Below are positions 2,591 through 31,360 of a DNA stretch of 36,703 nt, one piece after another. A program made the translations under genes and the position numbers. The notes under the pieces are model-generated. The model was not told where the DNA came from. It searched no databases and was given only the letters and a program-made list of their open reading frames with translations. The DNA comes from an uncultured Clostridia bacterium (GTDB lineage Bacteria > Bacillota > Clostridia > Christensenellales > Borkfalkiaceae): contig CANRFW010000004.1 in assembly GCA_947630035.1 (NCBI GenBank), forward strand, positions 1 through 36,703. The letters are read 5' to 3'. Every line of letters starts with the position of its first letter. Within the stretch, counting starts at the first letter, position 1.

Positions 2591-2620
2591 TATGACGGAA
2601 GGTTTTTCATGTTAAAATTA

Positions 2621-2829: not shown

Positions 2830-3681
2830 ATGGTAAGAATTCTGATAGACAGCGCTTCCGATATCGAACAGGAAGAGGCAGAGCGGATGGGGATCGCAAT
2901 GATCCCGATGGAGATCGGGTTCGGGGAGGAGACCTATTTGGACGGGGTCAACCTTTCGCACAGGCAGTTCTTCGAGAAACTTCTCGGGGGCGACGTCTTC
3001 CCGAAGACGAGCCAGATCAACGAATACCGTTGGGCCGAGGCGTTCGGGCGCATGACGGAAGGAGGAGACGAGGTCATCGCGATCACCATTTCCTCCAAAC
3101 TCTCGGGGACGTTCGCCTGCGCCGTGAAGGCGGCGGAGCGCTTTGCGGGGCGGGTGATCGCAGTGGACAGCCTGAACGCCGCCGCGGGGGAGCGGATCCT
3201 CGGCGAGTATGCGCTGCGCCTTGTAAAGGAGGGGCGGGACGCGGGCGCGATCGCGGCCGAACTGAACGAAAAGAAGAAAAAGATACAGGTGCTTGCCGTC
3301 GTCGACACCCTGAAATACCTCCGCAAGGGGGGCAGGATCTCGGGCGCGGCGGCGCTCGCGGGGGAGATGCTCTCGGTGAAGCCCGTCGTCTCGGTCATCG
3401 AGGGGGAGGTGCGGCTCGTAGGGAAGGCGATCGGCAGCAAGCGGAGCAATAATTTGCTAAAGCAGCTCGTGCAAAAGTGCGGCGGGATCGACTTTTCCAT
3501 GCCTTACGCGCTCATGTATTCGGGGCTTTCCGACGACTACCTCAAGCGGTACCTGCACGACAGCGAGGCGCTCTGGAAGGACCGCGTTGACCCCGAAAAG
3601 ATCCCCGTCCACCTCATCGGCAGCGCGATCGGGGCGCATATCGGTCCCAACGGCGTGGGCGTCGCCTTCTTTTCCAAGTAA
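2830..3681 (+). CDS. DegV family protein (FakB-like fatty-acid-binding)
   Basis: This 283-residue protein has the DegV family layout. It opens with VRILIDSASDIEQEEAERMG, has the KTSQ segment near residue 60, SSKLSGT in the middle, a KKIQVLAVVDTLKYLRKGGR segment, and the closing GAHIGPNGVGVAFF. DegV/FakB proteins bind a fatty acid in a buried pocket and present it to the kinase FakA in Firmicutes; no fakA is present in this window. The ATG at 2830 is chosen because AAGAGGAGT precedes it and because the protein then begins at the conserved strand. The ORF-track start at 2752 would add an unrelated leader. The length is normal for the family. It is a single gene with promoter and terminator. Confidence 0.93.
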   Translation: MVRILIDSASDIEQEEAERMGIAMIPMEIGFGEETYLDGVNLSHRQFFEKLLGGDVFPKTSQINEYRWAEAFGRMTEGGDEVIAITISSKLSGTFACAVKAAERFAGRVIAVDSLNAAAGERILGEYALRLVKEGRDAGAIAAELNEKKKKIQVLAVVDTLKYLRKGGRISGAAALAGEMLSVKPVVSVIEGEVRLVGKAIGSKRSNNLLKQLVQKCGGIDFSMPYALMYSGLSDDYLKRYLHDSEALWKDRVDPEKIPVHLIGSAIGAHIGPNGVGVAFFSK

Positions 3682-3735
3682 TGCCGCGGGGGGTACGGCG
3701 CCCCGCCGAAAAAAATTTCTTTTGTGAACGATCGT

Positions 3736-3776
3736 GCCCCGCGGCTTCGAAGCTCCGCGGGGCTATCCTTTTGTTT
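3736..3776 (+). terminator. Rho-independent terminator after the DegV gene
   Basis: GCCCCGCGG (3736-3744) pairs with CCGCGGGGC (3755-3763), followed by TATCCTTTTGTTTT. It lies about 55 nt after the stop codon. Confidence 0.88.
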
Positions 3777-3909
3777 TCCGACCCCATGTTGTGATTTTGG
3801 GGAAGAGGGGCCGGAAAAGGGCGGGGTGAAAAGGGGGTGAAAGTTTTGGAAAAAGGGCGAAAAATGCGGAAAAATGCCAACATGGGCAAAAATTCCTGCG
3901 TAATTTTTA

Positions 3910-3938
3910 TTGACAACCCCCGCATATTATAGTATAAT
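3910..3938 (+). promoter_or_regulatory. Consensus promoter of the minor-pilin operon
   Basis: TTGACA (3910-3915), 17 bases, TATAAT (3933-3938): a perfect match to both sigma-A boxes. The start codon of the first prepilin gene is at 4148, so the leader is about 200 nt. The leader is purine-rich and contains a GCGGG/CCCGC hairpin near 4081-4097. I could not match it to a c-di-GMP (GEMM) or other known riboswitch by eye. Confidence 0.9.
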
Positions 3939-4147
3939 TCGCTCTGTATAAAGGTTTCGCGCGGCTGCGCGCATCGCAATGCGGCCCCGCACGCGCAAGG
4001 AAAACGCGTAGGAAAGCGGGGGGGAAGTGCGCGGGGGAAACCGAAAAAGCGGAAGAAAGCGCGAAAAAAGAGACGAAACGGCGGGGGAAACCCGCGGAGA
4101 TACACAGAATGTTTTTGAAAGGGAAAAGCCCGAAAGGGGGGCACGGT

Positions 4148-6397
4148 ATGAAGATACGGGAAAAACTTCGCGAAAGGCGCGGCTTCAGCCTCACGGAACT
4201 TCTCATCGTCGTGGCGATCATCGCACTGCTTGCGGGGATCGGCGCGGCGGTCATCAGCCCGCTCAAAATCAAGCGTGTGGAATACAACCGCAACGCCGAG
4301 TCCATTGCGACTGCGGTGCAGAACCGCTTGACTTCTCTGCGCAACGCGGGGCAGCTCGATATGCTGCGCGATCTCGGCGAGCCTGCAGCCAAGGACGGCG
4401 CGTCGGGCGGCATGCGGTATCTCTTCAGCTACACGGAGGAGGGGGACGGCACCTCGCCTAATCCCGATATGAACCTCATCCTGCCCTTCGGCTCCATCGA
4501 GACGGAGATCGCGGGCAAGTACTACGCCGTCGCATTCCATGCAGAGAGCGGGCTTGTCGAGAGCGTCTTCTGGAGGGAGACCCCCTTCCCGACCCGCTCC
4601 GCCGAATACCTCGAAGGCCTTGCGGACGATTCCGCCACACGCGAGGCGGAGAAGATCGGCTACTACGGCTTTGAGGCAACGGGCACGGGGGAGGTCGCTC
4701 CCGCCCAGCTCCCCACGCCGCAGATCACCGTCTCCAACTATGAGGAACTCATCGTCTCCGTCTATCTCCCCGAAGTGCGCCAACTCAAGGGCAAAAAGCT
4801 CGCCCTGCGCTTCTCCCTCGGGGACGAGAAGGACGAGGTTTACGCAAAAGACAGTAGCAATCACGCGGCGCTCACCTACGACGACACGGCCATCTACCGC
4901 ACCTATACCTACGGCGACGAGCCCGTCAACAATTTCGCGGACGACATTTCGATGGGGGTGACCTATAAGATCATCCTCGACACGCCCGACGACACCTTGA
5001 CCGAAACCGCCGTTATCCGCAATGCGCTTGCGGCAAACGGCACGAGCGACACGCCGCCGAGCGGGAAGTTCGAGGCATGGGCGCGGCGCACCAAGGCGTT
5101 TGCGGGGTACGCGGGCGCCGATGCTTCTTCGCATGAAAAGCTCTTCAAGCTCGGCGACAACGTCAAGCTCACGGTTACCGTGTTCTGCTTGAAAGCGGAC
5201 GGCACGGGCATCGACAACGCGTTCATGCCCCGCATGGGCACGGCCACCTTCAACGGTTGGTTCGAGAGTTACAACGGGAGCAGCACCGTCACCATCGCGA
5301 GCGGGCGGCACCTGCAGAACCTCGCCAAGCTCACCGAGATGAACTCCAAGTTCGAGGGGTATCTCCCCTCCTACACGGTGGACGCGGCGGGCAACTATAC
5401 GTACAAAGACGCGAGCAGCGGCGGCGGCTATTACTTCACCGATAACGGCGGAAGCTCCGATATCAGCAAGAAGTACAAGTACCGCGCCAATGTGCAGAGC
5501 AAGATTACGAAAGCCAAGCAGATGATGGCGATCGACTTCAACTGTCCCGAATGGAAGTCGAAGAAAGCGGGCAAAACCAGCGAGCAGATCCCCTTTGACC
5601 CTATCAATCTCTATGAGGGGTTCGAGTACTACGGGAACTATCTCTCCGTCAAGCATCTCTATGTGGACGCTCCCTACTATGCGGGGCTGTTCGGCTATGC
5701 AAACAACGCAAAACTTTACGATATCCTCCTCGTCAACCCGAGCGTGAACTCGCACATGCCCGACTATGTGGCGCAGTATTACGAGATGGGGGTGGGCGCC
5801 CTCATCGGCACCTCGCGCGATTCCAACGAGATCGCCAACTGCCAGACGTACGTCGAAAAGGAGAACGGGAAGGACGTTTCCGATTTGTACCGCGTAACGG
5901 GCGGCGCCTATGTGGGAGGGCTCATCGGGTTCTGCGAGGATGAGAGCATCCGCCAGAATTCCGCCTCCGTCAACGTGGGGGACGAAAACTCCCTCTATGT
6001 GGGCGGGGTGATCGGCTGTATCACGGGCGATTCCACCATCAAGCGTTCCTATGGTGCGGGGAGCCTCATGGGGCAGTATGTCGGCGGGCTTGTCGGCATC
6101 GTCTTGCAGGACTCCGAGCCTTCGGGCGACGAGTATTATATCGAATCTTGCTATACGGCGGGGCACATTGAAAAGGCAACGGTAAGCGCCGCGGGGATCA
6201 TCGGCTGCGTCGACGAGCAGAACGGCCTCATGAAGTCCGCCCTCCGCGTGACGGGGAACTACTGCGCCGTCATTTACGGCGTGGGGTCGGGTTCGGCCTA
6301 CACATGGGATTCCACGCGCGCCGACGGGACGCTACCCCCATCTACGGCACGTTTGAGGGGGACGGCTTCGAGTGGCTCGCCTCCGATGGGGACGTAG
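4148..6397 (+). CDS. Giant GLUG-repeat minor prepilin, N-terminal part (frameshifted)
   Basis: The protein begins with a type IV prepilin leader, MKIREKLRERRG, then FSLTELLIVVAIIALLAG with Glu at +5, so it should be cut by the peptidase at 28344-29132 and enter the pilus. ATG 4148 has AAAGGGGGG upstream. A long exported region follows. Residues about 580-690 carry repeated glycine-rich segments such as YVGGLIGF, YVGGVIGC and YVGGLVGIV, the GLUG type found in large bacterial surface proteins. Near 6326 the coding frame moves to the 6304-8379 frame. This frame runs on for about 23 unrelated residues to a TAG at 6395. Adding one G to the GGG at 6326-6328 would restore a continuous reading frame. 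The whole gene would then be 4148-8802, apart from a TGA at 8377. Other minor pilins are usually under 250 residues, so the size is unusual. Confidence 0.85.
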   Translation: MKIREKLRERRGFSLTELLIVVAIIALLAGIGAAVISPLKIKRVEYNRNAESIATAVQNRLTSLRNAGQLDMLRDLGEPAAKDGASGGMRYLFSYTEEGDGTSPNPDMNLILPFGSIETEIAGKYYAVAFHAESGLVESVFWRETPFPTRSAEYLEGLADDSATREAEKIGYYGFEATGTGEVAPAQLPTPQITVSNYEELIVSVYLPEVRQLKGKKLALRFSLGDEKDEVYAKDSSNHAALTYDDTAIYRTYTYGDEPVNNFADDISMGVTYKIILDTPDDTLTETAVIRNALAANGTSDTPPSGKFEAWARRTKAFAGYAGADASSHEKLFKLGDNVKLTVTVFCLKADGTGIDNAFMPRMGTATFNGWFESYNGSSTVTIASGRHLQNLAKLTEMNSKFEGYLPSYTVDAAGNYTYKDASSGGGYYFTDNGGSSDISKKYKYRANVQSKITKAKQMMAIDFNCPEWKSKKAGKTSEQIPFDPINLYEGFEYYGNYLSVKHLYVDAPYYAGLFGYANNAKLYDILLVNPSVNSHMPDYVAQYYEMGVGALIGTSRDSNEIANCQTYVEKENGKDVSDLYRVTGGAYVGGLIGFCEDESIRQNSASVNVGDENSLYVGGVIGCITGDSTIKRSYGAGSLMGQYVGGLVGIVLQDSEPSGDEYYIESCYTAGHIEKATVSAAGIIGCVDEQNGLMKSALRVTGNYCAVIYGVGSGSAYTWDSTRADGTLPPSTARLRGTASSGSPPMGT

Positions 6398-8379
6398 GGC
6401 TTCTCACGGGGAACGATGAGAACGGCACGCGTGTGGTCCTCGGCGCGGATTACGGGTACGACAACGAGAATTACTACTTCCCGCAGAAGGGGATCACCTA
6501 TTCGAACAGCGACTATTTCAACGATATCCACGGGGTCGCGGAGAATTTCGTGACCGAGCTTCAGAAGAAAACGGCGAACACCCAGCGGCAGGCGCTCCTC
6601 GAGGAGACGCGGGAAAAACTCCGTTGGGCGAAGCAACGCAACGCCCTCGAGGCGCTGAAGAAGAATTTCGAAAATCTCATCAAGGAATTCTCCAACGAGA
6701 CGGCGGTTTCCCCCGTTTCGAAAAAGCCTTACCGCGACGGCGGATATGGCAACTATGCGCAGGTATACATTGACTTGAAGAGCGAGTCGACGAAAGAAAA
6801 CGGGCAGATGATCGTCCACACGGGCGATAATTATGCGCTGAATGTTACGGGACGCTGTCTCGCCGTGACAACATACACCGCCCTCGAGTATATCTACGAC
6901 GGCGACTACGATGGGAAAACGGTTCAAATCCAAGTAACGGACGGAGCGCATGAGGAAGCGACGAATAATACTTTCATGTATTATTACAACCTCGCTCACA
7001 ATGCGCTCGACAGACTGATCGGCGGTACAAGTACCGACGCAGCGGGCGATAAGGCGCTCCTTACCCGCGTTCTCGGGCCCGACAACGACTATACAAATGG
7101 GTATCTCTATAAATATACCTACGATAAATTGCTCCGCAAGGTATTTAGCGAATCGTATAGCTATTATTCTTATTACCAAGTAGACCGCGTCGGCGAAGCA
7201 ATGTTCAGCTACTATAGCGATCGTTTGGCGAAGAGAAGGATCCGCGATCTTTTGGATTCGATAACGACGACGTCGTCCTCGTTGAAGACGTTGGCGCAGG
7301 CCAAGAAAAATGCCCTTATGACCGCGACGACGAAATACCTCACGGAACTTGAAAATATCCTTGCGGATTGGGCGGACACGACAATGGGTTCCTATACGGC
7401 ACAGATCACGGAATTGTTGACGACGGCAAAATCCTCGGTGAAGGCTCTATCCGATCTCGTCTCGGGGCTTGACTATACGCCGGGGACGTCCTCGCCCACC
7501 ACCGATCCCGCACAACTTCGGGCCGCCGCGTCCACGGCGTATACAGACGTCTACGCTCTCTACAGCTTTTTCGATTCCGTCAAGAATACCGAGGTAGACA
7601 AAACCGTTGTACTCCAGAAGAGTGAGTCCGGCGGCTCAATCACCAATTCGTACGGCTACTACGAGAAAGACAACGGATATATCCTCGGCAAGGGAGATAT
7701 GCGCGGGTTCCGCGATATTTTCGAGTCGGTCATGTACGATCTCGATAAGACGGTCACCGTCGTTAATTCGGGGTTGGACGGCGCAATGGATCAGTTCGAG
7801 TACTCCATGTATTTAAGCCCTGCCGAAGTGAAAGCCGCAGAGGAGGAGTGCGTGAAGAACTTCGACCTGCTCCTCGCCGTGAATTGGGAAGGGCGCGATT
7901 CGGGGCACAGGATCTATTCCGCCTACGAGCTTCGCAGGATCAGACAACAGCACTTTATCAACTCCGATTTCGTCTACGATTACCACAGCGTTTCGGCGTA
8001 TAGCAGCAAGTGGGCCTCGGGGTCGTACGTCGATAAAGATAACGGCATTTACAACAACGTGCTTCCTTTCAACGAACAGGGCGACGCTACCAAGTATTAT
8101 CCCTACCTCTTCATCAAGGGCAGGGGGATCATGAATGCCTCCACGGGCAAGGAATCCGACGATAAGGCGACGGGCGTCCTCTTCCACTACGGCGATTGGC
8201 TCACTTCCGATATGATCGCAGAGGACCAGAGCAACCACGCCTACCACACCGTAAGCGAGGCGACGGATGTCGCAGCGGAGGCAAAGGAAGCCATTGCCGA
8301 GATCATCGAACTTTCCGCCACCGATTCGGGTATGTGGACGAGCAGCAGCGGCATGGGCAGCTATAAAACGCAGGTGTGA
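6304..8379 (+). CDS. Giant minor prepilin, middle part (downstream of frameshift)
   Basis: This frame continues the protein above: after the shift it reads TPIYGTFEGDGFEWLASDGD, the same style as the region before it. The ATG at 6304 is very unlikely to be a real start, because it has no ribosome-binding site and lies within the upstream coding frame. The segment is rich in Tyr, Asp, Ser and Thr, with alpha-helical stretches such as KTLAQAKKNALMTATTKYL that may form coiled coils. Three 60-base lines between 6961 and 7200 count to about 37-42% GC, against about 63% in a sample at 9241. It ends in a TGA at 8377-8379, after which the same frame stays open to 8802. No enzymatic motif was recognised; an adhesive or structural role is inference. 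Confidence 0.75.
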   Translation: MGFHARRRDATPIYGTFEGDGFEWLASDGDVGLLTGNDENGTRVVLGADYGYDNENYYFPQKGITYSNSDYFNDIHGVAENFVTELQKKTANTQRQALLEETREKLRWAKQRNALEALKKNFENLIKEFSNETAVSPVSKKPYRDGGYGNYAQVYIDLKSESTKENGQMIVHTGDNYALNVTGRCLAVTTYTALEYIYDGDYDGKTVQIQVTDGAHEEATNNTFMYYYNLAHNALDRLIGGTSTDAAGDKALLTRVLGPDNDYTNGYLYKYTYDKLLRKVFSESYSYYSYYQVDRVGEAMFSYYSDRLAKRRIRDLLDSITTTSSSLKTLAQAKKNALMTATTKYLTELENILADWADTTMGSYTAQITELLTTAKSSVKALSDLVSGLDYTPGTSSPTTDPAQLRAAASTAYTDVYALYSFFDSVKNTEVDKTVVLQKSESGGSITNSYGYYEKDNGYILGKGDMRGFRDIFESVMYDLDKTVTVVNSGLDGAMDQFEYSMYLSPAEVKAAEEECVKNFDLLLAVNWEGRDSGHRIYSAYELRRIRQQHFINSDFVYDYHSVSAYSSKWASGSYVDKDNGIYNNVLPFNEQGDATKYYPYLFIKGRGIMNASTGKESDDKATGVLFHYGDWLTSDMIAEDQSNHAYHTVSEATDVAAEAKEAIAEIIELSATDSGMWTSSSGMGSYKTQV

Positions 8380-8385
8380 TCCCTT

Positions 8386-8802
8386 GTGACAAAGGCGAAT
8401 ACGGCGCTGCAGACGTTCATAGACAAGGCGACCGCCTACGCAAAAGTGCAAAATGCGACGACCGTCAGCGAATATAACACCGCTCTGAAAGCCGCGCAGG
8501 ACGCATACAACGACCTGTTCCTGCTCTTCGATGCGGGCGATAGAGACAAGATCACGTTCTCCGACGGCACTACGCAGACGGGCGGGGTCAAGAATATCGT
8601 CGACGCCGTCAACATGCTCGGGCAGACCGTTCCGAAACTTTCGGGCGATGATTATCACGGCTATCTCACCGATTCGTCGGGGAAGCAGGTCTTGGATGAA
8701 AACGGCGCCCCGATCAAACTTGAGAGCTGTATGCGGACGCTCCGTACGGCAATCGAAGATCAGCTCAAATATCTCAACCGCATTCAGCCCGTATCGCTGT
8801 AA
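8386..8802 (+). CDS. Giant minor prepilin, C-terminal fragment after in-frame stop
   Basis: This is in the same frame as 6304-8379, two codons after its TGA. The GTG at 8386 has no clear ribosome-binding site, so it is best read as the C-terminal tail of the same gene cut off by a nonsense change. The sequence TKANTALQTFIDKATAYAKV and the following KAAQDAYNDL resemble short helical FIVAR-type modules of Gram-positive surface proteins; this is a weak visual similarity. It ends 12 nt before the start of the next gene, whose AAAGGAGG follows directly. An independent small protein starting at GTG is possible but less likely. Confidence 0.6.
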   Translation: MTKANTALQTFIDKATAYAKVQNATTVSEYNTALKAAQDAYNDLFLLFDAGDRDKITFSDGTTQTGGVKNIVDAVNMLGQTVPKLSGDDYHGYLTDSSGKQVLDENGAPIKLESCMRTLRTAIEDQLKYLNRIQPVSL

Positions 8803-8814: not shown

Positions 8815-9756
8815 ATGAAAAAGGTTTTGAAAAAACTGAATAACAGGCGCGGCGCGTCCGTCATCGTGGCGATCCTCCTCTTCATGCTCTGCGCCCTCGC
8901 GGGGGTCTCCGCCCTCACCATGGCGGCCGCCAACGCGGGCAGGTATTCCCACGCCGACGAAGACAGGCAGCCCTACTACTCCGTCACCTCCGCCGCCTTC
9001 CTCATCGCCGACCTCCTCGACGGCATGAACTACAAGTCCGAGATGATCGAACACTCCTACACGCATGCGTGGACGTATGACAGTGCGAGCGGCGGACGGG
9101 TCGCGACGGACGAATATACCCTCAGCATCCTCACCGATGCCCGCGATCCCGTAACGGGCGCCTACACCCTCGCCCCTCTCACGGGGACGACGTACGGCGA
9201 AAGCGGCTACCGCATCGAGATCCCGCACCGCATGGATGGCGACGTCGATCTCGAAACGGCGACCGACACTTCCGCCCGCCATTCGCTCGAGAAGTGGCTC
9301 GCGAAGGAGATCCTCTTGCAGTGCGACCGTATCGTGCCCTACCTCTCCGTCCCGCGCGAGTGGTACAGCTCGGTGGATAAGGTCACGGCAGACGGGCAGG
9401 GGGGGAAGACGAGCCCCGAGAGCTACATGCCTTCGACCCTCAACTACTCCTTCTCGGTCGTTCCCGAGGGCGGCAACCCCGTGGACGTGAAGCTCGTGAT
9501 GAATGCGACTTACGACCTCCTCTTCTCCTTTGCCTACCGCGGAGCGGACGGCGCTTCCTACGGCGTCAACCTCTATTGGAGGGCGACGGTCGAGGAGACG
9601 GCGGAGAAGGGGGAACCCATCTACAGCTATACGGAAAGCGGCGAAACGGCGTCCATCACCATCAAAGACTCCAAGCAGGTGAGAGTGACGTGGAACAAGG
9701 CGGACGTGACGATCTCGCGCGGCGCCGTCGAAGAAACGGAGGGGACCAATGCGTAA
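8815..9756 (+). CDS. PilX/GspK-like pilus assembly protein
   Basis: This 313-residue protein has AAAGGAGG five bases before its ATG. The N-terminus, MKKVLKKLNNRRG then ASVIVAILLFMLCALAGVSA, is a prepilin-like leader plus hydrophobic helix, but Val stands where pilins have Glu at +5. That pattern fits the PilX and GspK-type minor subunits, which lack Glu5 and sit at the pilus or pseudopilus tip. The rest is a soluble exported domain with many beta-type segments and no motif I can name. It lies between the giant prepilin and two short prepilins and overlaps the next gene by 8 nt. The assignment to PilX/GspK is by N-terminus, size and position only. Confidence 0.75.
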   Translation: MKKVLKKLNNRRGASVIVAILLFMLCALAGVSALTMAAANAGRYSHADEDRQPYYSVTSAAFLIADLLDGMNYKSEMIEHSYTHAWTYDSASGGRVATDEYTLSILTDARDPVTGAYTLAPLTGTTYGESGYRIEIPHRMDGDVDLETATDTSARHSLEKWLAKEILLQCDRIVPYLSVPREWYSSVDKVTADGQGGKTSPESYMPSTLNYSFSVVPEGGNPVDVKLVMNATYDLLFSFAYRGADGASYGVNLYWRATVEETAEKGEPIYSYTESGETASITIKDSKQVRVTWNKADVTISRGAVEETEGTNA

Positions 9757-10072
9757 ACTCATGAAAAAATTGCGCTCCCGCAGGGGAGATACCTTTGTCG
9801 AAGTTTTGATCGCCGTTCTCATCGTCGCCTTCGGGTGTCTCGTGATCGGCACCATGTTCGCCTCCGCCATGACGTTGAACCTCTCCGCCAAGGCGAAGGA
9901 CGATGCCTACTACGAGGCGCTCTCCCAGATGGAGCAGGCGGATAAGAATGCGGGCACCCAGAAGGTGGAAGTCACGGACGGCACGAACTCCGCGACCGTT
10001 GAGACCGATAAATACGGCAACGACGAGCTTTATTCCTATCGCAAAAACTACAAAGAGCAGGGGAAGAGCTAA
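9749..10072 (+). CDS. Minor prepilin (PilV/GspI-like)
   Basis: This 107-residue protein has the prepilin cleavage signature MRKLMKKLRSRRG then DTFVEVLIAVLIVAFG, with Glu at +5. It should be processed by the prepilin peptidase and inserted in the inner part of the pilus or its tip complex. The gene starts inside the last codons of the preceding gene (8-nt overlap), with GGAGGGG upstream, which points to translational coupling. The C-terminal domain is short and Lys/Thr/Asp-rich, without cysteines. The first mature residue is Asp rather than the usual Phe or Met, which is acceptable for minor pilins. Confidence 0.85.
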   Translation: MRKLMKKLRSRRGDTFVEVLIAVLIVAFGCLVIGTMFASAMTLNLSAKAKDDAYYEALSQMEQADKNAGTQKVEVTDGTNSATVETDKYGNDELYSYRKNYKEQGKS

Positions 10073-10075
10073 ACC

Positions 10076-10597
10076 ATGAGAAAGAGACTTTTCGGCAAAA
10101 AGGGGATGACCGTCGTCGAAGTTCTCGTCGCGGTCGCCATCCTCGCGATCTTCGTCTCCATGGCGGCGGTGGGCACCTCCGCCCTCTTCGGCACGAGCGA
10201 AAAGATGATGTCGGTCTCCAAGGCCGCCGTCCTCGGCGCAGACCTCATGGACGTCATGCGCAACGAGATAAGCTACGGCGAGAATGTGGAAGATATCGCG
10301 TCCTCCTCCGAACTCCGCTACGACAGCGCCTCTTACGGGGACGGCTGCACGCTGACGGTGCGGGAGGGGAGGCTCGTCATCCTCCGCACGGAGACGGGTT
10401 CCGGCACGGCGGAGACCGAGACCTATTCGGCCGTCGGCGAGGCCGCATACGACGAGGTCTCGGTCGGCACCCTCTCCTTTGCAAACGGGACGAACGGCGC
10501 GATCGTCGTGACCCTCTCCATTTGCACGGGGGACGGCAAGACGCTCTGGCAAAACACCGCCGCCATCTGTCCCCTCTATCTCAAAGCAACCTTCTGA
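10076..10597 (+). CDS. Minor prepilin (PilW/GspJ-like)
   Basis: This 173-residue protein begins MRKRLFGKKG then MTVVEVLVAVAILAIF, a standard class III leader with Glu at +5. It starts 3 nt after the previous stop, so the three small pilin genes form one translational block. The exported domain has regularly spaced beta-strand-like segments ending in SICTGDGKTLWQNTAAICPL, with two cysteines that could pair. Gene order (large pilin, GspK-like, GspI-like, GspJ-like) recalls minor pseudopilin sets that form an initiation complex at the fibre tip. The PilW/GspJ label rests on size and position, not on a distinctive motif. Confidence 0.85.
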   Translation: MRKRLFGKKGMTVVEVLVAVAILAIFVSMAAVGTSALFGTSEKMMSVSKAAVLGADLMDVMRNEISYGENVEDIASSSELRYDSASYGDGCTLTVREGRLVILRTETGSGTAETETYSAVGEAAYDEVSVGTLSFANGTNGAIVVTLSICTGDGKTLWQNTAAICPLYLKATF

Positions 10598-22628: not shown

Positions 22629-22687
22629 CCCCATAATAGATACATGGGGTGGAAAAATCTCAAAATCGGACGCGGAGCAACTCCGCG
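22629..22687 (+). promoter_or_regulatory. Two hairpins in the gap before pilB
   Basis: The 82-nt gap holds CCCCAT/ATGGGG (22629-22634 and 22644-22649) and CGCGGAG/CTCCGCG (22671-22677 and 22681-22687). The second ends just before the AAAGGGG that serves pilB. There is no T-run, so these are not clear terminators. They could tune expression or RNA processing between the signalling genes and the motor genes; that is inference. Confidence 0.45.
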
Positions 22688-22702
22688 AAAGGGGTAGTGC
22701 GC

Positions 22703-24403
22703 ATGGAATATTTTCGGTTAGGCGATATCCTCGTCAACAACGGCGCGATCACAAAAGAGCAGCTCGATAAGGCGCTCGAATTGCAGAAGACGAGGCACGA
22801 GCGTCTCGGCACCATTCTCATCGACGAGGGCATCATCAACGAACAGCTCCTCATCGAGACCCTCGAATTGCAGCTCGGCATAGACTTTATCGATCTCTCG
22901 AAGGTCCGTATCCCGATCGAGCTTGCTTCCCTCGTGCCCAAGAGCATTGCGCGGCGGCACGGGGTGGTGCCCGTCCGTCTCAATAAAGACGAACTCACCC
23001 TCGCAATGTCCGATCCTCTGAACTTCGTCGCCCTCGAGGAAGTGCGCACGGCGACCCGCAAGCGCATCCTTCCCAAGATCGCGACGACGGTTGCCGTCAA
23101 CAAGGCGATCTCCACTCTCTACGGCAACGAGGGCGTCGCCCGCGCCATCGAGGAGATGCGCAGCGATACCTCCGCCCAGACGGCGGCAGCCGCCCGTCCC
23201 CACAGCGAGGAAGTCACGGAAGACGGCGCCCAGCAGTCCGCCCCCACCGTAAGGCTCGTCAACTCCATTTTGGAACGCGCCGCCAACGAGCGCGCGAGCG
23301 ACGTGCATATCGAACCCCGTGCCGACGAAGTGGTCGTCCGCATGCGGATAGACGGCAAGCTCCGCACCGTGCTTACGGTGCCCGACGAGCTGAAGCGCAC
23401 CGTCGTCTCCCGCCTCAAGATCATGGGCGGCATGGATATTTCGGAGTCCCGCACCCCGCAGGACGGCCGCGCGAACGTCCTCGTAAAGGGGCACAATATC
23501 GACCTGCGTATGTCCACCCTTCCCGCCATGTACGGGGAGAAAGTGGTCATCCGTCTCCTCGATAAGTCCGCCCAGCTCCTCGATGCGAAGGCGATCGGCC
23601 TCGAGGGGGAGAACCTCGAAAAATACAACAAGCTCCTCACCAATGCGCACGGCATGATCCTCATCGTCGGCCCCACGGGTTCGGGCAAATCGTCCACCAT
23701 GTATACGATGATCCGCTCCCTCAACACCGACGAGGTCAACCTCGTCACCCTCGAGAACCCCGTCGAGTACGATATCGACGGCGTCAACCAGGTGCAGATC
23801 AACGAGAAGACGGGCATGACCTTTGCGGAGGGCCTCCGCGCCATTCTCCGTCAGGACCCCGATATCATCGCGGTCGGCGAGATCCGCGACAGCGAGACGG
23901 CGGAGATCGCCATCCGCTCCGCGATCACGGGCCACCTCGTGCTTTCCACCGTCCACACCAACGACGCGCTCTCCGCCATCGACCGTCTCGTCGATATCGG
24001 CACCGCGCCCTACCTCATTGCGGATGCCCTGAAAGGGGTCATCTCCCAGCGGCTCGTCCGCCGTATCTGCCCCCACTGCAAGGAGGCATACTCCCCCACG
24101 GAGGAGGAGCTTGCGGCGCTCGGGTGCGACGTGGACGACGAAGATATCCGCTTCTACCGCGGCAAGGGCTGCCCCCATTGCTATCACACGGGTTACGTCG
24201 GGCGGACGGGCGTCTTCGAAATTCTCCTCATCGACAAGGATTTCAAGCGCGCCATCGCCGAGGGGCACCACACCGCACAGCTCTCGGAGTACGCGGAGAA
24301 GGGGACCTTCTCCCCGCTCGCGGAGGATTGCCGCAGGCTCGTTCTCGCGGGGGTCACCTCCGCGGAAGAGGCGATCGGCGTCCTCAATTCCACTGTAAAA
24401 TAA
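22703..24403 (+). CDS. pilB: Type IV pilus extension ATPase PilB with MshEN domain
   Basis: This 566-residue motor ATPase powers pilus extension from the cytoplasmic face. ATG 22703 is preferred for its AAAGGGG site and because the MshEN domain begins at once. It has two successive 24-residue motifs starting RLGDILVNNG and RLGTILIDEG, each ending in LELQ, separated by five residues. That is the spacing known for c-di-GMP binding in MshE-type ATPases. The ATPase core has Walker A GPTGSGKSS (323-331), a Walker B-type segment RQDPDIIAVGEIRD and the His box STVHTNDALSAIDR. A zinc site follows, with CPHC in RRICPHCK and CPHC in GKGCPHCYHTGY. The length is normal. It is followed by pilT and pilC. 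Confidence 0.96.
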   Translation: MEYFRLGDILVNNGAITKEQLDKALELQKTRHERLGTILIDEGIINEQLLIETLELQLGIDFIDLSKVRIPIELASLVPKSIARRHGVVPVRLNKDELTLAMSDPLNFVALEEVRTATRKRILPKIATTVAVNKAISTLYGNEGVARAIEEMRSDTSAQTAAAARPHSEEVTEDGAQQSAPTVRLVNSILERAANERASDVHIEPRADEVVVRMRIDGKLRTVLTVPDELKRTVVSRLKIMGGMDISESRTPQDGRANVLVKGHNIDLRMSTLPAMYGEKVVIRLLDKSAQLLDAKAIGLEGENLEKYNKLLTNAHGMILIVGPTGSGKSSTMYTMIRSLNTDEVNLVTLENPVEYDIDGVNQVQINEKTGMTFAEGLRAILRQDPDIIAVGEIRDSETAEIAIRSAITGHLVLSTVHTNDALSAIDRLVDIGTAPYLIADALKGVISQRLVRRICPHCKEAYSPTEEELAALGCDVDDEDIRFYRGKGCPHCYHTGYVGRTGVFEILLIDKDFKRAIAEGHHTAQLSEYAEKGTFSPLAEDCRRLVLAGVTSAEEAIGVLNSTVK

Positions 24404-24437: not shown

Positions 24438-25487
24438 ATGCCCATGGATCTCAACACGCTCGTTGCACAGGCAAGAGCATCCCGCGCATCGGATATCCAC
24501 CTCGTGAGAGGACTGCCCGCCCGCATCCGTGTGGACGGCGAACTCGTCAACTTCGGCACCCCGCTCACGGCCGCCGACTGCGAATATTACGCACGGCAGA
24601 TGGCGGGTGCGGAGTACGCCAAGATCGAGAAGATGGGGGAGCTTGACCTTGCCCTCACCTTCCCGGGGCGCATCCGCTGCCGTATCAATCTCTTCCGCCA
24701 GCAGGGGGCGATCTCCGCGGCGATCCGTATCCTCTCCGATAGGATCCCCGAACTCGATTCCCTCGGCCTCCCGCCCATGGTGCAATCGCTGCCCTCCTTA
24801 AACCGCGGCATTGTGCTTGTCACGGGTGAGACGGGGTCCGGTAAATCCACCACCCTCGCCGCCATGCTCAACCGCATCAACCGCACCAAAAACGCACATA
24901 TTATCACGTTGGAAGACCCGATCGAGTATATCTATGAACCCGATAAGTGCGTCATCAACCAAAGGGAGATTGGCTCGGACACCGAGAGCTACGCGACGGG
25001 CCTCCGTGCCATTCTCCGCGAAGACCCCGACGTCATCCTCATCGGCGAAATGCGCGACCTCGCCACCATCGAGACGGCGCTTACGGCGGCGGAGACGGGG
25101 CACCTCGTGTTTGCCACCCTCCACACCAACTCCGCACCCGACTCCATCGACCGCATCGTGGACGTGTTCCCCGAAATGCGGCAGAAACAGATCCGCATGC
25201 AGCTCTCGACGACGCTCATGGCCGTCCTCTCCCAACAGCTTCTCCCGAAGAAGATGGGGGGCAGGGTCGCGGCGTGTGAACTCATGATGGTGACGCCCGC
25301 CATCCGCAACCTCATCCGCGAGGGGAAGACGCCGCAGATCGCAAGCTCGATGGCGACGTCCGCCTCGGAGGGGTCGGTGACGATGGACAATTCCCTCATT
25401 GCGCTCTTCCGCCAGCGGGTGATCTCGGGGGACGTAGCCAAGGCCGCCGCACACGACGCGGAGTACGTCCGCAAGAACGTGTATTAA
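24438..25487 (+). CDS. pilT: Type IV pilus retraction ATPase PilT
   Basis: This 349-residue motor ATPase drives pilus retraction (twitching, DNA uptake). It begins with LVAQARASRASDIHLVRGLP, the PilT N-terminal domain. Walker A is GETGSGKSTT starting near residue 130. The Asp box, REDPDVILIGEMRDLATIET and the His-box sequence FATLHTNSAPDSIDRIVDVFP are all present. It lacks the zinc-binding cysteines of PilB, as expected. ATG 24438 lies 34 nt after pilB with GGGAGAGAAG upstream. The presence of PilT implies dynamic, retractable pili. Normal family length. Confidence 0.96.
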   Translation: MPMDLNTLVAQARASRASDIHLVRGLPARIRVDGELVNFGTPLTAADCEYYARQMAGAEYAKIEKMGELDLALTFPGRIRCRINLFRQQGAISAAIRILSDRIPELDSLGLPPMVQSLPSLNRGIVLVTGETGSGKSTTLAAMLNRINRTKNAHIITLEDPIEYIYEPDKCVINQREIGSDTESYATGLRAILREDPDVILIGEMRDLATIETALTAAETGHLVFATLHTNSAPDSIDRIVDVFPEMRQKQIRMQLSTTLMAVLSQQLLPKKMGGRVAACELMMVTPAIRNLIREGKTPQIASSMATSASEGSVTMDNSLIALFRQRVISGDVAKAAAHDAEYVRKNVY

Positions 25488-25863: not shown

Positions 25864-27081
25864 ATGCAGACTTTCAAATATCGCGCGATCGCGCAGGACG
25901 GCTCCACCGTCGACGGCGTGATCGAGGCTTACGATGAATTCGAAGCCGTCAACGAGATCCGCAAGAGCTGCGCGGTCGTCGAGTCGATAAAGCCCGTGCG
26001 CAAGCAGCGGCGGACCATCGATATCAACGAGCCGCTGTGGGTCAGCAATAAGACGCTCGCCATCACCGCGAACCAGTTCTTCATCATGTTGAAGGCGGGT
26101 CTCACGATGACGCGCACCATCGAACTCATCGCCGACCAGTGTAACGACCGTTTGATGAAGCGCATCCTCCGCGCCTGTGCGGGGGACGTGGCTGCGGGCT
26201 ATTCCCTTGCGGGCAGTCTCGAGAAGAACGGCAAGAAGATCCCCGCCGTGTTCATCGAAACGGTGCGCGCGGGGGAGGAATCGGGCACGTTGGAGCAATC
26301 CTTCCGCAGTCTCGAGACCTACTATAGCCGTGCGAACAAAACGCAGAAGAAGGTGAAATCGGCACTCACCTATCCCATCCTCGTCCTCGTCGTGGCGGTC
26401 ATCGTCATCGGCGTCGTGATGGTGGTGCTTGTCCCCCGCATGACGGAGACCCTCACCTCCTTCGGCACCGAGCTGCCCCTCGTCACCCGCATCCTCATTG
26501 CGATCTCCGATTTCTTCAAGAATTGGTGGTACCTTGTGGCGATCGTGCTTGTCGCGCTCGTGTTGGGGCTGTACTTCTTCGGCAAGTCCGAAAAGGGGAA
26601 GATGGCGTATTCCAAACTCCGCTTCAAACTCCCCGTCATCGGAAAGATCACCCGCTTCAATTCCGCGGCGCAGGTCGCGAACACCCTCTCCACCTTGCTT
26701 GCCGCAGGGCTCCCCGTCACCCGCGCGCTCGATATCGTCAGCCGCGTCGTCGACCAACGCTGTTTGGGCAAGGAACTCAGCGAGGCGATCGTAAAACTCG
26801 AGGGCGGCATCAGCCTCGGCGAAGCGCTCAAAGAGTCCAAATACCTGCCCGCGATGCTCATTGAGATGATCACGGTAGGGGAGTCCTCGGGTATGTTGGA
26901 GGAGACTCTCCGCACGATCGGGCTGTTCTACTCGGACGAAGCGACCTCCGCATCCGACTCGGCGCTCGGCCTCATGGAGCCGATCATTACGATTATTTTG
27001 GGCGTTGTCGTTGGATTCATCGTGATCGCGATCTACGTGCCGATCTTCTCCATGTCCACGGCCGCCGGCAGCGGGATTTAA
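25864..27081 (+). CDS. pilC: Type IV pilus inner-membrane platform protein PilC
   Basis: This 405-residue GspF/PilC-family protein starts MQTFKYRAIAQDGSTVDG, the classic N-terminus. It contains two T2SSF repeats (about residues 65-190 and 270-395) with the signature turns VRAGEESGTLEQ and ITVGESSGMLEE. Three membrane segments are visible: about 171-192, 221-241 and the end segment PIITIILGVVVGFIVIAIYV. It forms the platform on which PilB and PilT act. The ribosome-binding site TAAGGAGGT is very strong, which makes sense because a repeat-filled gap separates it from pilT. Family-typical length. Confidence 0.96.
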   Translation: MQTFKYRAIAQDGSTVDGVIEAYDEFEAVNEIRKSCAVVESIKPVRKQRRTIDINEPLWVSNKTLAITANQFFIMLKAGLTMTRTIELIADQCNDRLMKRILRACAGDVAAGYSLAGSLEKNGKKIPAVFIETVRAGEESGTLEQSFRSLETYYSRANKTQKKVKSALTYPILVLVVAVIVIGVVMVVLVPRMTETLTSFGTELPLVTRILIAISDFFKNWWYLVAIVLVALVLGLYFFGKSEKGKMAYSKLRFKLPVIGKITRFNSAAQVANTLSTLLAAGLPVTRALDIVSRVVDQRCLGKELSEAIVKLEGGISLGEALKESKYLPAMLIEMITVGESSGMLEETLRTIGLFYSDEATSASDSALGLMEPIITIILGVVVGFIVIAIYVPIFSMSTAAGSGI

Positions 27082-27426: not shown

Positions 27427-27521
27427 ACCCCCGTAAAATCCTCAACCACGGTTTCAACGTTGTATCATCCCTGCAACGTCGAAATAAATAAAAATCTTTC
27501 ATGAAAGGAGTAACAAAACCC

Positions 27522-27932
27522 ATGAACAAGAAACTGAAAAAGGGCTTCACCCTTGCCGAGCTCTTGATCGTCGTCGCGATCATCGCGGTCCTTACCGCTA
27601 TCGCGGTCCCGCTTTTCGTGACCTCGATCAACAAAGCGCAGAATGCGACCAAAGATGCGAACATCCGTTCCGTCCGCGTTGCCGCTGTGTACTACATTCT
27701 CAGCCATGACGAAGATCCAAATCTTTATGCCGATAACAAACTGATTGGCGATAAATTCCAAGTTGATGCTACGTTGGATACGAGTGGCAACATCTCGGAT
27801 CTCAAGGTCGCAGTGACGGAAAAGGATGTCACGGAGAAGTATGATACGTCTACCGAGGGCAAAATTGTCATTTGCACCAGCGTTACGGCGACGCAGGTTG
27901 AATCCCAGCAAAAAATCGGAGCTGGTGGTTGA
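27522..27932 (+). CDS. pilA: Major type IV pilin (PilA-like prepilin)
   Basis: This 136-residue prepilin has leader MNKKLKKG, then mature FTLAELLIVVAIIAVLTAIA with Glu at +5, the textbook pilin N-terminus. The ATG at 27522 is chosen over 27501 because GAAAGGAG lies between them and the leader is then of normal length. The mature part continues through an amphipathic helix (FVTSINKAQNATKDANIRSV) and a small, Thr/Asp-rich globular domain. It has no cysteines, so there is no disulfide loop. It sits between the motor genes and the peptidase gene and is probably the main fibre subunit. Codons after about 27710 use A/T at third positions more often than neighbouring genes. Confidence 0.92.
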   Translation: MNKKLKKGFTLAELLIVVAIIAVLTAIAVPLFVTSINKAQNATKDANIRSVRVAAVYYILSHDEDPNLYADNKLIGDKFQVDATLDTSGNISDLKVAVTEKDVTEKYDTSTEGKIVICTSVTATQVESQQKIGAGG

Positions 27933-28054: not shown

Positions 28055-28174
28055 GAACGTAAGAACGTCCTGCGTTCCCCTCCGCATAGGACGAATTTGA
28101 AAGCTACACACCCCCTCAGTCACGCCCAAGGGCGGCGTGACAGCTCCCCCTCAAGGGGGCGCCAAGAGACGGGT

Positions 28175-28244
28175 TGGCCGCAAAGGGCGCGGCGGAGCTT
28201 CAGCGCAAGGCACGCCTACGGCGCCCTCAAGGGGAAGCCGAGAG
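28175..28244. repeat. Partial MITE-like element (half copy)
   Basis: The segment from GGCGGAGCTTCAGCGCAAGG to AAGCCGAGAGG is nearly identical to the second half of the element at 25579-25724. A related CTCCCCCTCAAGGGGGC hairpin sits at 28144-28160. No gene is seen between 27933 and 28343. Confidence 0.75.
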
Positions 28245-28343
28245 GCGGGTTGGCTGCAAAAGGTGCCGTGCCACCCTCCCCCTTGGAAAGGGGTAGGGCA
28301 TCAACAAACCGAACAATCCGAACCAAGGAGACCGGAGGTACTC

Positions 28344-29132
28344 ATGTCAATCGATTTGCCGCTCGCGGCGGATATTTACCTCTCGGTCCTTCTCTTCTGC
28401 CTCGGCGCGTGCATGGGAAGTTTCATCACCTGCGCCGCCGACCGCTATGTCGCCAAAGAGAGCGTGCTCCGCGGCAGGAGCAAGTGCCCCGTATGCGGGC
28501 ACACCCTCTCCGCATTCGAGCTTATCCCCGTCCTCAGCTGGCTGTTTTTGGGGGGCAGGTGCCGAAAATGCGGTGCGCCCATCCCCGTGCGGTGCTTCTT
28601 CACCGAACTTTTAACGGGACTTCTGTACCTCGTCACATACCTCAAATACGGCTTTGGGTTTGTGACGCTCGAATATCTCATCCTCTTCTCCCTGCTGCTC
28701 GCCGTCGGCCTCATCGACTACGACACCATGGAGATCCCCGACGGGCTTACCCTCGCGGGGGCCGTAACCTTCCTCCTCTTCCTCTATCCGCACGGCGGGT
28801 GGGGCGAGCGGGTGACGGACGGTCTTCTCGGCGGGTTGGTCTACGGCGGGGGCATGCTCCTCATCTCCCTTGTGATGGACTTCCTCTTGAAGAAGGATAC
28901 CCTCGGGGGAGGGGACGTAAAGCTGTTCGCGATGCTCGGCCTCTTCACGGGGCTTGCCCGCGGGCTGCTGATGCTCCTCATTTCGTGCATTACGGGGCTG
29001 CTCTTCGCCCTCTCCGCAAGGGGAGGCAAGAAGAAGGAGTTCCCGTTCGGACCCGCCATCGCGGTCGCGGCCATGTTTACCTTGATCGCGGGGCAGGATC
29101 TCATAAATTGGTATCTCTCGCTGATTTCATAA
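28344..29132 (+). CDS. pilD: Prepilin peptidase (PilD, A24 aspartic protease)
   Basis: This 262-residue polytopic membrane enzyme cleaves prepilin leaders and usually methylates the new N-terminus. The start at 28344 follows CCGGAGGTACTC; the ORF-track start at 28137 runs through a repeat. The N-terminal domain has GSFITCAADR and the zinc-type pairs in KCPVCGH and RCRKCGAPI. LIPVLSWLFLGGR between them is characteristic. The catalytic aspartates are in LIDYDTMEIPDG and in the LGGGDVKLFAMLG motif. Both domains are present, so the enzyme looks complete. It should process all prepilins in this window. Confidence 0.96.
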   Translation: MSIDLPLAADIYLSVLLFCLGACMGSFITCAADRYVAKESVLRGRSKCPVCGHTLSAFELIPVLSWLFLGGRCRKCGAPIPVRCFFTELLTGLLYLVTYLKYGFGFVTLEYLILFSLLLAVGLIDYDTMEIPDGLTLAGAVTFLLFLYPHGGWGERVTDGLLGGLVYGGGMLLISLVMDFLLKKDTLGGGDVKLFAMLGLFTGLARGLLMLLISCITGLLFALSARGGKKKEFPFGPAIAVAAMFTLIAGQDLINWYLSLIS

Positions 29133-29148: not shown

Positions 29149-30135
29149 ATGAAGCATTGCATCGGTTTCGACATCGGGAATCATGCGGTACACGTCGCGG
29201 TCCGCAAGGGCGATTCCATCGTGCGCGGATTGACCGTGCGTCTCGCGCAGGATCTCGTGAAAAACGGCACGATCACCTCTTACGAGGCGATGACGGATTT
29301 CCTCAAAGAACTCCGCCGCGTGCAGAAGCTGACGTCCACACGGAACGCCGCGCTCATCTTGCCCGCCCCGCTCTGCTATTGCCGCAGGTTCTTTGTGGCG
29401 GCGAACACCCGCGACCAGCTCATGTTCAACCTGCCCTACGGCTTCCGCGATTTCATCACGGACGACAAGAGCAATTATTTCTTTGACTGTGCCGTCCTCA
29501 ACGCCGTCCGCTACGGCGACGAGCGTCCGCCCGAATTCGACGTACTTGCCGCGGCGACGAGGAAGGAAGTCGTCGAGGACTATGTCAACATGTTCAAGAA
29601 GGCGGGCTTCAACTTAAAGACCATTATCCCCGAGGAGTTTGCCTATGTCAACCTCTGCCGCAGGGCGGAGGGGGAGCCCCACCACCACGGCATTCTCGAT
29701 ATCGGGCACAACGCGGTGAAGCTCTTCCTCTACGACGGCGAACTCTTCGAGAGCGTGCGCGTCATCGATTACGGCTGTAACGCGCTCGACGAGGTCATCT
29801 CCGAACACTTCGGCGTCGATACCTTCATGGCGGGCACCTACCGCGAGAACGACTTCGGCGGGGCGAACAGCCTCGAGGGGTGCCGCACCATCTACGGCGC
29901 AATGGCGCTCGAAGTTCTGAAAGCGCTCAACTTCTACCGCTTCAACGGCGGCGGGAGCATCGAGCATCTGCACTGCTGCGGCGGCGGCGCGCACAACGCG
30001 GCGCTCATGGATACCCTCCGCAGCACCCTGCCCATTCCGCTCACCGACCTCGGCGAGTTCTTCACGGGCAACAAATCCAAGGAAGGGATCGACTTCCCGC
30101 TCATCGCCGCGGCGGCGGGCGTGGCATTGCAATAA
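29149..30135 (+). CDS. pilM: Type IV pilus assembly protein PilM (actin-like)
   Basis: This 328-residue cytoplasmic protein has an actin/FtsA-like fold. FDIGNHAVHVAV at the start is the phosphate-1 loop, LDIGHNAVKLFLYDGE near residue 180 the phosphate-2 loop, and HCCGGGAHNAALMD near 280 the adenosine motif. PilM binds the cytoplasmic tail of PilN and links the PilN/O ring to the motors. It starts at 29149 after AAGGAGAACG, 16 nt after pilD, and is followed by PilN- and PilO-like genes in the canonical order. Length is slightly below that of proteobacterial PilM. Confidence 0.92.
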   Translation: MKHCIGFDIGNHAVHVAVRKGDSIVRGLTVRLAQDLVKNGTITSYEAMTDFLKELRRVQKLTSTRNAALILPAPLCYCRRFFVAANTRDQLMFNLPYGFRDFITDDKSNYFFDCAVLNAVRYGDERPPEFDVLAAATRKEVVEDYVNMFKKAGFNLKTIIPEEFAYVNLCRRAEGEPHHHGILDIGHNAVKLFLYDGELFESVRVIDYGCNALDEVISEHFGVDTFMAGTYRENDFGGANSLEGCRTIYGAMALEVLKALNFYRFNGGGSIEHLHCCGGGAHNAALMDTLRSTLPIPLTDLGEFFTGNKSKEGIDFPLIAAAAGVALQ

Positions 30136-30150: not shown

Positions 30151-30774
30151 ATGGCAGTTTCCAAGAAAGAGGCGGACGTGCAGGTGACTTTTTACGACGT
30201 CGCCAACCGCACCACGAACAGCGCACGCGCTTCGGCGATCGCCTCGAAGTATTCCACCAAGGAGACGGTGAATCTCTGCATAAAGGAGAGGAAGGGGATG
30301 TCTTTCGAGCTGTTCTTCCTCATCCTTGCGGCGATCCTTGTCTTCCTTCTCATCATGGAATTCTTCGGGATCTACCGTCCCTACCTTGCCCTCGAACAGG
30401 CGGAGGCACAGCTCACCGAAGATCAGGCCCGGCTCGAGCAACTCTACGGGGAGATGTCGGACCGCGAGAGCGTCCGCGAACAGTATCGGCTCTATAACTA
30501 CGAAAACTTCCCGCGGGACCTCGTTGACCGTGCGGACGTCCTCGACCTTCTCGAAAAGGAGGTGTTCCCCCACGGCAAGGTGGTGACGTTCTCCATTACG
30601 AGGAACGCGCTCACCCTCACCCTTACGGGCATTCCGGACGCAGAGGGCGCCGCCATGCAGAAGGCGCTCCGTGAGAACAAGATCGTGCAGACCGCTATCG
30701 TCTCGAGCGAGGATGAGGCGACGGGTATCGTAAGCATGACGATCATTTTCAAGGACGCAACGGAGGTGGAATGA
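30151..30774 (+). CDS. pilN: PilN-like pilus alignment protein
   Basis: This 207-residue protein has one transmembrane helix (about residues 52-74, FFLILAAILVFLLIMEFFGI) after a polar cytoplasmic tail of about 50 residues. A coiled-coil stretch follows (LEQAEAQLTEDQARLEQLYGE) and then a small alpha/beta domain. This is the PilN layout, and the gene is directly after pilM, whose product binds the PilN tail. AAGGAGG precedes ATG 30151. Sequence identity to known PilN is not obvious by eye; order and architecture carry the assignment. Confidence 0.8.
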   Translation: MAVSKKEADVQVTFYDVANRTTNSARASAIASKYSTKETVNLCIKERKGMSFELFFLILAAILVFLLIMEFFGIYRPYLALEQAEAQLTEDQARLEQLYGEMSDRESVREQYRLYNYENFPRDLVDRADVLDLLEKEVFPHGKVVTFSITRNALTLTLTGIPDAEGAAMQKALRENKIVQTAIVSSEDEATGIVSMTIIFKDATEVE

Positions 30775-30775
30775 C

Positions 30776-31360
30776 ATGGCTAACAAGTATTTGAAGCGGA
30801 AATTTACCCTGCGCGAGAGCATTCTCCTCATCATTCTCTTTGTGGTACTCGTCCTCGGGCTCTACTTCGGGTTGGTGTATTACCCCATCGCGAGCCGTAC
30901 CGCGGATCTCAACCAGAATCTTGACGACGTGCAGTTGCAGCTCACCGTCGCCGAGAGCCTCAAAAAGCAGTACGACGACATGAAGGCGGAACTCAACACG
31001 ATGGATAAGACCACCGTCATGCCGCAGTACAAGAACAACGAGCAGCAGGAGACCCTCCGCGCCCTCTTCGAGACCATTTTCTCGGGCGTCACCAATTACA
31101 GGATCACCTACAACACCTCCGAGCCTTCGGACGGCGTGCGCACCCGCACCGTCGGTTTCATCTTCACCATCGACGCGAGCAACGCGGGGGAGGGGCAGAC
31201 CGTCTACCAAAAGGTGAAAGAGCTTCTTGCCAGCGTTATGACGACGGGCTACCGCTGCTGCATGCAGAACCTTTCTCTCTCGCCCGACGGCGGCGATTTG
31301 GAGAAAGCCACCCAAATTTCGGTGAACTGCAACGTGGAATTCTACGAACTCGACAGCTGA
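30776..31360 (+). CDS. pilO: PilO-like pilus alignment protein
   Basis: This 194-residue protein has a short basic N-terminus, one helix (about 16-38, LLIILFVVLVLGLYFGLVYY), a coiled coil (about 40-80) and a ferredoxin-like C-terminal domain, the PilO pattern. It begins 1 nt after the PilN-like stop, with GGAGGTGGA upstream, implying coupled translation and likely heterodimer formation with the PilN-like protein. It is the last gene before the terminator at 31560. PilP and PilQ are absent, as expected without an outer membrane. Confidence 0.82.
   Translation: MANKYLKRKFTLRESILLIILFVVLVLGLYFGLVYYPIASRTADLNQNLDDVQLQLTVAESLKKQYDDMKAELNTMDKTTVMPQYKNNEQQETLRALFETIFSGVTNYRITYNTSEPSDGVRTRTVGFIFTIDASNAGEGQTVYQKVKELLASVMTTGYRCCMQNLSLSPDGGDLEKATQISVNCNVEFYELDS

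What the first reader, a model, noticed from the sequence alone, without database searches (positions are those of the whole stretch)
4148..8802. Giant GLUG-repeat prepilin, a candidate adhesive pilus tip
A standard prepilin leader is fused to an exported region that, with the frame repaired, would total about 1,550 residues, with GLUG-type glycine repeats, long Tyr/Ser/Thr-rich stretches and helical modules. It leads a set of minor pilins ordered like a tip-initiation complex. Minor pilins of this size are rare; a tip adhesin is the natural hypothesis.
Basis: partly seen in the sequence, partly recalled or inferred. Interest (0 to 1): 0.65.

Follow-up and report, generated by a model that had tools for sequence, protein, structure and literature searches.

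The report
Giant modular type IV minor pilin
A gut bacterium carries a broken copy of a gene for a very large pilus subunit; related gut bacteria carry intact copies, nearly always beside the small subunits thought to build a pilus tip, which makes it a plausible but unproven sticky tip.

Summary
Confirmed. Positions 4148-8802 hold one giant prepilin gene, broken here by a frame break near 6317-6331 and an in-frame TGA at 8377-8379. Architecture: class III leader with Glu5, pilin module, Ig-like domain, GLUG beta-solenoid, an alpha-helical insert of about 500 residues that one homologue lacks, a closing HYGDW motif and a variable tail. The GLUG region matches the beta-helix of the pneumococcal IgA1 protease, but no giant has HExxH: a binding scaffold, not a peptidase. 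Small minor pilins (one without Glu5) sit directly beside the giant in nearly every cassette seen, also in other families of the class, where giants reach 5,153 residues. PilB, PilT, PilC, PilD, PilM and a major pilin lie downstream; no secretin. Best reading: a modular minor pilin in the H slot of an HIJK-like tip complex, acting as a retractable adhesin. Modular pilins, including this domain pair, are already described; size, fixed cassette, helical insert and likely exchange between families make it a new variant. Ligand and tip location are inferred.

The parts
3910..3938 (+). sigma-70/sigma-A promoter-like site TTGACA-17-TATAAT, 12 of 12 matches, 210 nt before the start codon
   Evidence: also 12/12 upstream of three homologous cassettes, L032, L036, L062. 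Consensus match, not proof of function
4148..6330 (+). giant prepilin, first half: leader 4148-4183, helix alpha1 4184-4345, pilin sheet about 4412-4717, Ig-like about 4718-5257, GLUG beta-solenoid about 5285-6307
   Evidence: AlphaFold2 pLDDT 79.6; profile match to IgA1 protease beta-helix
5678..6217 (+). six GLUG-type quasi-repeats (YAGLFGY, GVGALIG, YVGGLIG, YVGGVIG, YVGGLVG, AAGIIG)
6317..6331 (+). frame break beside a short C run; intact homologues read straight through
6331..8376 (+). giant prepilin, second half in the other frame: end of solenoid (PIYGTFEGDG), alpha-helical insert, closing motif YP.PF-LFHYGDWLT (HYGDW near 8185-8199)
8377..8379 (+). in-frame TGA inside the variable tail, after the conserved core
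8380..8802 (+). C-terminal helical tail, continues the same frame
   Evidence: aligns with the tail of L032 and L064
8815..9756 (+). K-like minor pilin (313 aa), no Glu5 (RRGASVIVAILLFMLCALAG)
   Evidence: GspK hit only for a paralogue, E 0.11
9749..10072 (+). I-like minor pilin (107 aa)
   Evidence: PilV E 5e-5, ComGE E 3e-4, below cut-offs
10076..10597 (+). J-position minor pilin (173 aa)
   Evidence: N_methyl 2e-5, PilV 5e-7 below cut-off
22649..24403 (+). PilB extension ATPase (MshEN + T2SSE)
24438..25487 (+). PilT retraction ATPase
25864..27081 (+). PilC platform protein (T2SSF)
27501..27932 (+). major pilin candidate (143 aa, ComGC/GspG-like)
28137..29132 (+). prepilin peptidase PilD
   Evidence: A24_N_bact 1e-26, Peptidase_A24 8e-17
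29149..30135 (+). PilM
30151..31360 (+). PilN-like (30151-30774) and PilO-like (30776-31360), by position and size
   Evidence: weak family hits only

Best explanation
A giant modular minor pilin of a retractable, secretin-free type IV pilus. The prepilin peptidase would cut after Gly12; Glu5 and helix alpha1 insert it into the filament like any pilin (established for pilins in general). It takes the H/FimU position in a four-part tip complex with the K-, I- and J-like pilins encoded directly after it, the Glu5-less K-like one capping. The grafted part (Ig-like spacer, GLUG beta-solenoid, alpha-helical insert, tail) then projects from the tip and binds a surface or ligand; PilB extends and PilT retracts it. 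Shown: gene, domain order, cassette, machinery, intact homologues. Inferred: H slot, tip position, adhesion. In this genome the gene is interrupted, so this copy is probably off or decayed unless the breaks are assembly errors.
For: Single open ORFs in 11 MAGs; giant next to K, I, J homologues in nearly every cassette where the contig reaches, and in Oscillibacter L067, with the same layout in other families; K-like gene lacks Glu5 in all cassettes inspected; PilB, PilT, PilC, PilD, PilM and major pilin on the same contig; PilT and PilB adjacent in 11 of 11 genomes, no secretin in 11; model with alpha1, pilin sheet, Ig-like, beta-solenoid; GLUG region matches the IgA1 protease beta-helix (E 4e-5), whose N-terminal domain contacts IgA1 Fab (PMC7695701); S. 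sanguinis PilB is a proven modular pilin adhesin (PMC8179133).
Against: No functional data. I, J and K labels rest on order, size and Glu5; curated models do not reach cut-offs. Foldseek gives no significant match. The second-half model is poor (pLDDT 57.6). The window copy cannot make the whole protein as read.
Confidence: 0.62

Rival explanations
1. The grafted module is a peptidase: the 2021 survey called IPR012902-IPR011493 pilins predicted M26 peptidases.
For: GLUG region is related to the beta-helix of an M26 IgA1 protease; text of PMC8179133.
Against: No HExxH in any of 25 giant proteins (24 complete or partial homologues and the two window pieces); no M26 catalytic domain in Pfam scans. 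The shared part is the non-catalytic beta-helix.
Confidence: 0.04
2. Structural or initiating role only: the giant primes pilus assembly or blocks retraction at the base, without binding a ligand.
For: It always sits with core minor pilins that start assembly; HIJK pilins are needed for assembly in model systems (PMC10191384).
Against: A 1,000 to 5,000-residue exported, modular and variable region is costly for a primer; the tail and insert vary between homologues while the pilin and GLUG parts are kept.
Confidence: 0.15
3. It is a cell-surface protein held by its N-terminal helix, never built into a filament.
For: Very large size; no filament data.
Against: Canonical class III leader with Glu5, fixed place in a minor-pilin cassette, complete pilus machinery on the contig.
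Confidence: 0.12
4. In this genome it is simply a pseudogene or an assembly error and has no function now.
For: Frame break and TGA; the same genome's second giant on C66 is also frame-broken; G060's copy has several stops and its K gene is split, G003 has one TAG.
Against: Promoter match, ribosome site, K, I, J and the machinery are intact in the window; the TGA falls after the conserved core; 11 of 14 close homologues are open. Says nothing against the family.
Confidence: 0.5

Closest known systems
Modular type IV pilins, type example PilB of Streptococcus sanguinis (vWA) with PilC (lectin); PMC8179133, PMC9934059
   Same: Class III leader and pilin module with a large grafted C-terminal module; secretin-free pili; minor pilin partners.
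   Different: PilB is about 50 kDa; here 1,100-5,150 residues, several modules, GLUG solenoid instead of vWA, and K-, I- and J-like partners all present rather than an I-like PilA with two modular pilins.
IPR012902-IPR011493 (prepilin plus GLUG-type) entries of the same survey
   Same: Same domain pair, by my recollection that IPR011493 is the GLUG entry.
   Different: The survey read it as an M26 peptidase; no zinc motif here. The helical insert, closing HYGDW motif and cassette context are not described in the text read.
HIJK minor pilin complex (FimU-PilV-PilW-PilX; GspH-I-J-K)
   Same: Four adjacent minor pilins, one large one lacking Glu5.
   Different: The Glu5-bearing H-position protein is the giant; gene order is giant-K-I-J or K-I-J-giant.
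PilC/PilY1 tip adhesin of diderms
   Same: Large modular tip protein with exchangeable binding modules; works-like comparison only.
   Different: PilY1 is not a pilin and carries a C-terminal beta-propeller; none found here.
M26 IgA1 protease beta-helix domain (PDB 6xjb)
   Same: Related GLUG-type beta-helix sequence.
   Different: No protease part, no HExxH.

Membership tests
Type IV prepilins (class III leader) | Short basic leader ending in Gly, Glu at +5, about 20 hydrophobic residues | tested here: met
   MKIREKLRERRG|FSLTELLIVVAIIALLAG; TIGR02532 28.7 bits over cut-off 16.3, PF07963 26 over 21.2
Modular pilins | Pilin module followed in the same chain by a domain not specific to pilus biology | tested here: met
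   Single open ORFs in 11 relatives; pilin sheet, Ig-like, GLUG solenoid. Not intact in the window copy itself
Modular pilins | Grafted module has a direct function, such as adhesion, displayed on filaments | not testable with these tools
   Needs protein and filaments
GLUG-motif proteins (PF07581) | GLUG repeats scoring over the Pfam cut-off | tested here: met
   Met in homologues L033 (35.2), L107 (32.6), L067 (45.3 bits); window copy alone 16.8, below 20.5
M26 peptidases | HExxH zinc motif and M26 catalytic domain | tested here: not met
   No HExxH in 25 giants, no M26 domain
HIJK tip complex, H position | Adjacent I, J and K minor pilins, K without Glu5 | tested here: inconclusive
   Three adjacent minor pilins, one without Glu5, conserved; curated I, J, K and H models do not reach cut-offs
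Type IVa-like pilus system | PilB, PilT, PilC, PilD, PilM with a major pilin | tested here: met
Type II secretion system | Secretin | tested here: not met
   PF00263 absent in 11 genomes, positive in 6 of 14 controls
PilC/PilY1 | C-terminal beta-propeller (IPR008707) | tested here: not met
   No such domain in Pfam scans of six giants

The most novel reading that the evidence does not exclude
Gut Clostridia commonly build pilus tips around a giant H-position pilin of 1,100 to over 5,000 residues whose GLUG solenoid, helical inserts and tails are exchanged between bacterial families in one host's gut, and which is switched or lost by frame breaks. It would be a class of retractable giant tip adhesins not recognised as such.
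Probability: 0.35. Interest if true: 0.68.

Novelty: new variant of a known kind. Interest (0 to 1): 0.5.

Why it matters
What uncultured gut Clostridia hold on to is largely unknown. A recognisable cassette (giant prepilin with K-, I- and J-like pilins) gives a sequence handle for finding tip-adhesin candidates in MAGs, and a set of natural swaps (helical insert present or absent, tails of different kinds) for working out which part binds. It also corrects a published guess that prepilin-GLUG proteins are peptidases.

Tried and rejected
Foldseek of both models against PDB: nothing at E below 0.001; weak best hits were beta-helix pectinases and Ig/FN3 receptors for the first half and helical bundles for the second. 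Rfam on the window: none, so no known riboswitch in the 210-nt leader; leader folding z -1.9 is not convincing. phmmer of the solenoid alone against PDB: none; only the family profile finds the IgA1 protease. Peptidase reading rejected. TGA read as a residue was used only to read the tail for alignment and folding; it is not proposed as recoding. Horizontal exchange: giant identity does not fall between GTDB families (50-67% within f1, up to 68% between f1 and f19) while a conserved RpoB stretch falls from 94-97% to 75-80%; but PilT shows no clear family signal either (78-89% within, 80-84% across), so this is kept as likely, not shown. In the first RpoB table G039 was read in a wrong frame; three minus-strand loci were read in the wrong strand; only correctly read rows are used.

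Full report
What is there. The window is one whole contig (36,703 bases) of an uncultured Clostridia MAG (75.7% complete); its closest named relatives are MAGs from rabbit gut, titled Lapin. At 4148 a gene begins with a good ribosome site and a canonical class III leader. It stays open in one frame to 6397, but homology leaves that frame near 6317-6331 and continues in another up to an in-frame TGA at 8377-8379, and then on to 8802. In GC-rich DNA long open frames are common on both strands, so the gene rests on conservation, not on length.

Intact relatives. Five same-genus genomes carry the gene as one open frame of 1,546-1,900 codons. A scan of species genomes found 13 close relatives (44% identity or more), all rabbit-gut Clostridia; 11 are open single frames, ten of them 1,503-1,900 residues long and one cut by its contig end after 1,183. 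Two are broken (G003, one TAG; G060, several stops and shifts), as is the window.

Architecture. The first half models well (AlphaFold2 pLDDT 79.6): alpha1 helix (residues 15-66), pilin sheet to about 190, an Ig-like stretch to about 370, and a beta-solenoid from about 380 with six GLUG-type repeats. The family profile matches the beta-helix of the pneumococcal M26 IgA1 protease (E 4e-5), a domain described in PMC7695701. No giant has HExxH, so this is the scaffold without the protease. Family members then share PIYGTFEGDG and, further on, YPFP...LFHYGDWLT. In the related type C giants (L040, L041) these two motifs lie about 100 residues apart, whereas here about 550 mostly helical residues lie between them; G003's copy lacks about 515 of these. 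The helical part is thus an insert in the end of the solenoid domain. The tail after HYGDW varies: absent in L038, helical in the window, and Flg_new-like plus a Hint-type domain in L033 (below Pfam's cut-off). The window's TGA only trims this variable tail; the frame break is the serious lesion.

Cassette. K-, I- and J-like minor pilins follow the giant at 8815, 9749 and 10076, with 12-nt or shorter gaps or overlaps. tblastn finds the same three beside the giant in every type A and B cassette whose contig reaches, and upstream of the giant in type C. The pattern extends to Oscillibacter (L067, 2,249 residues) and to other families of the class: 3,752, 3,284, 2,780, 2,449, 2,224 and 1,893-codon prepilin frames, nearly all with small minor pilins alongside. 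The largest is a 5,153-codon frame in G192 with a prepilin start, GLUG repeats, eight Flg_new repeats and a K-like neighbour. The K-like protein lacks Glu5; published work puts such a subunit at the cap of the tip complex (PMC10191384). That leaves the H/FimU position for the giant. Curated models for H, I, J and K do not reach their cut-offs, so the slot is inferred from order, size and Glu5.

Machinery. PilB, PilT, PilC, a major pilin, PilD, PilM and PilN/PilO-like genes lie at 22.6-31.4 kb. PilT and PilB are adjacent in all 11 genomes tested, none with a secretin: a retractable pilus without an outer-membrane pore. A perfect TTGACA-17-TATAAT lies at 3910-3938 and recurs upstream of three homologous cassettes.

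How it works. Established for pilins in general: leader cleavage and polymerisation through alpha1. Inferred: the giant joins the tip complex, projects its solenoid and helical modules, binds a ligand, and is pulled back by PilT. The ligand is unknown; mucosal proteins, mucin or plant fibre are all possible.

Compared with what is known. Modular pilins are an established idea: more than 1,200 proteins and 264 architectures, including IPR012902-IPR011493, which the authors read as M26 peptidases (PMC8179133). By my recollection IPR011493 is the GLUG entry; if so this domain pair was already counted. What I did not find described: members of this size, the fixed K-I-J partnership, the helical insert, and the apparent movement between GTDB families f1, f19 and f32 (tempered by PilT). 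I cannot say these are the largest pilins known, because no full protein database was searched.

The broken copy. Two giants in this genome are both frame-broken near short homopolymers (window, C run; C66, G run), while neighbouring genes are open. Decay, switching and assembly error remain open. No base was put back; pieces were searched apart, with the TGA read as a residue only to align and fold the tail.

Noticed in passing
G000:C66 (L039) 1877-5295, minus strand: A second giant prepilin (type B, related to L043, L047, L050) in the same genome, also frame-broken, near a run of G, followed by its own K, I, J set.
   Followed up: partly
L107:881-16339, minus strand (G192): Open frame of 5,153 codons with a prepilin start, seven GLUG-type motifs and eight Flg_new repeats, followed by a K-like minor pilin.
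   Followed up: partly
L033:6268-11922, minus strand, residues 1648-1783: The homologue in G039 ends in a Flg_new-like repeat and a Hint (hedgehog/intein-type) domain with N-terminal Cys, suggesting self-processing or cross-linking of a pilin; below Pfam's cut-off (23.2 vs 29.7 bits).
   Followed up: partly
window 10646-12811 and 17425-22620: Between minor pilins and pilus machinery lie hybrid histidine kinases, a response regulator with HD and GGDEF domains, and a 120-aa gene at 19521 that may be a phosphotransfer protein; G003 has a similar layout. Possibly c-di-GMP control of the pilus.
   Followed up: no
window 14284-14768, also 15-428: Repeated palindrome-rich intergenic units (CGTCACCCCGAGCGTAGTCGAGGGGTGACATG and similar), three copies of 94 nt and a tandem array of 80-nt units.
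   Followed up: partly
window 15057-17483: Frame with three Big_3 Ig-like domains next to the signalling cluster.
   Followed up: no
window 25503-25590 and 27163-27350: Short tandem repeats (30-nt units, 2.9 copies; 28-nt units, 6.7 copies) between PilT and PilC and between PilC and the major pilin.
   Followed up: no
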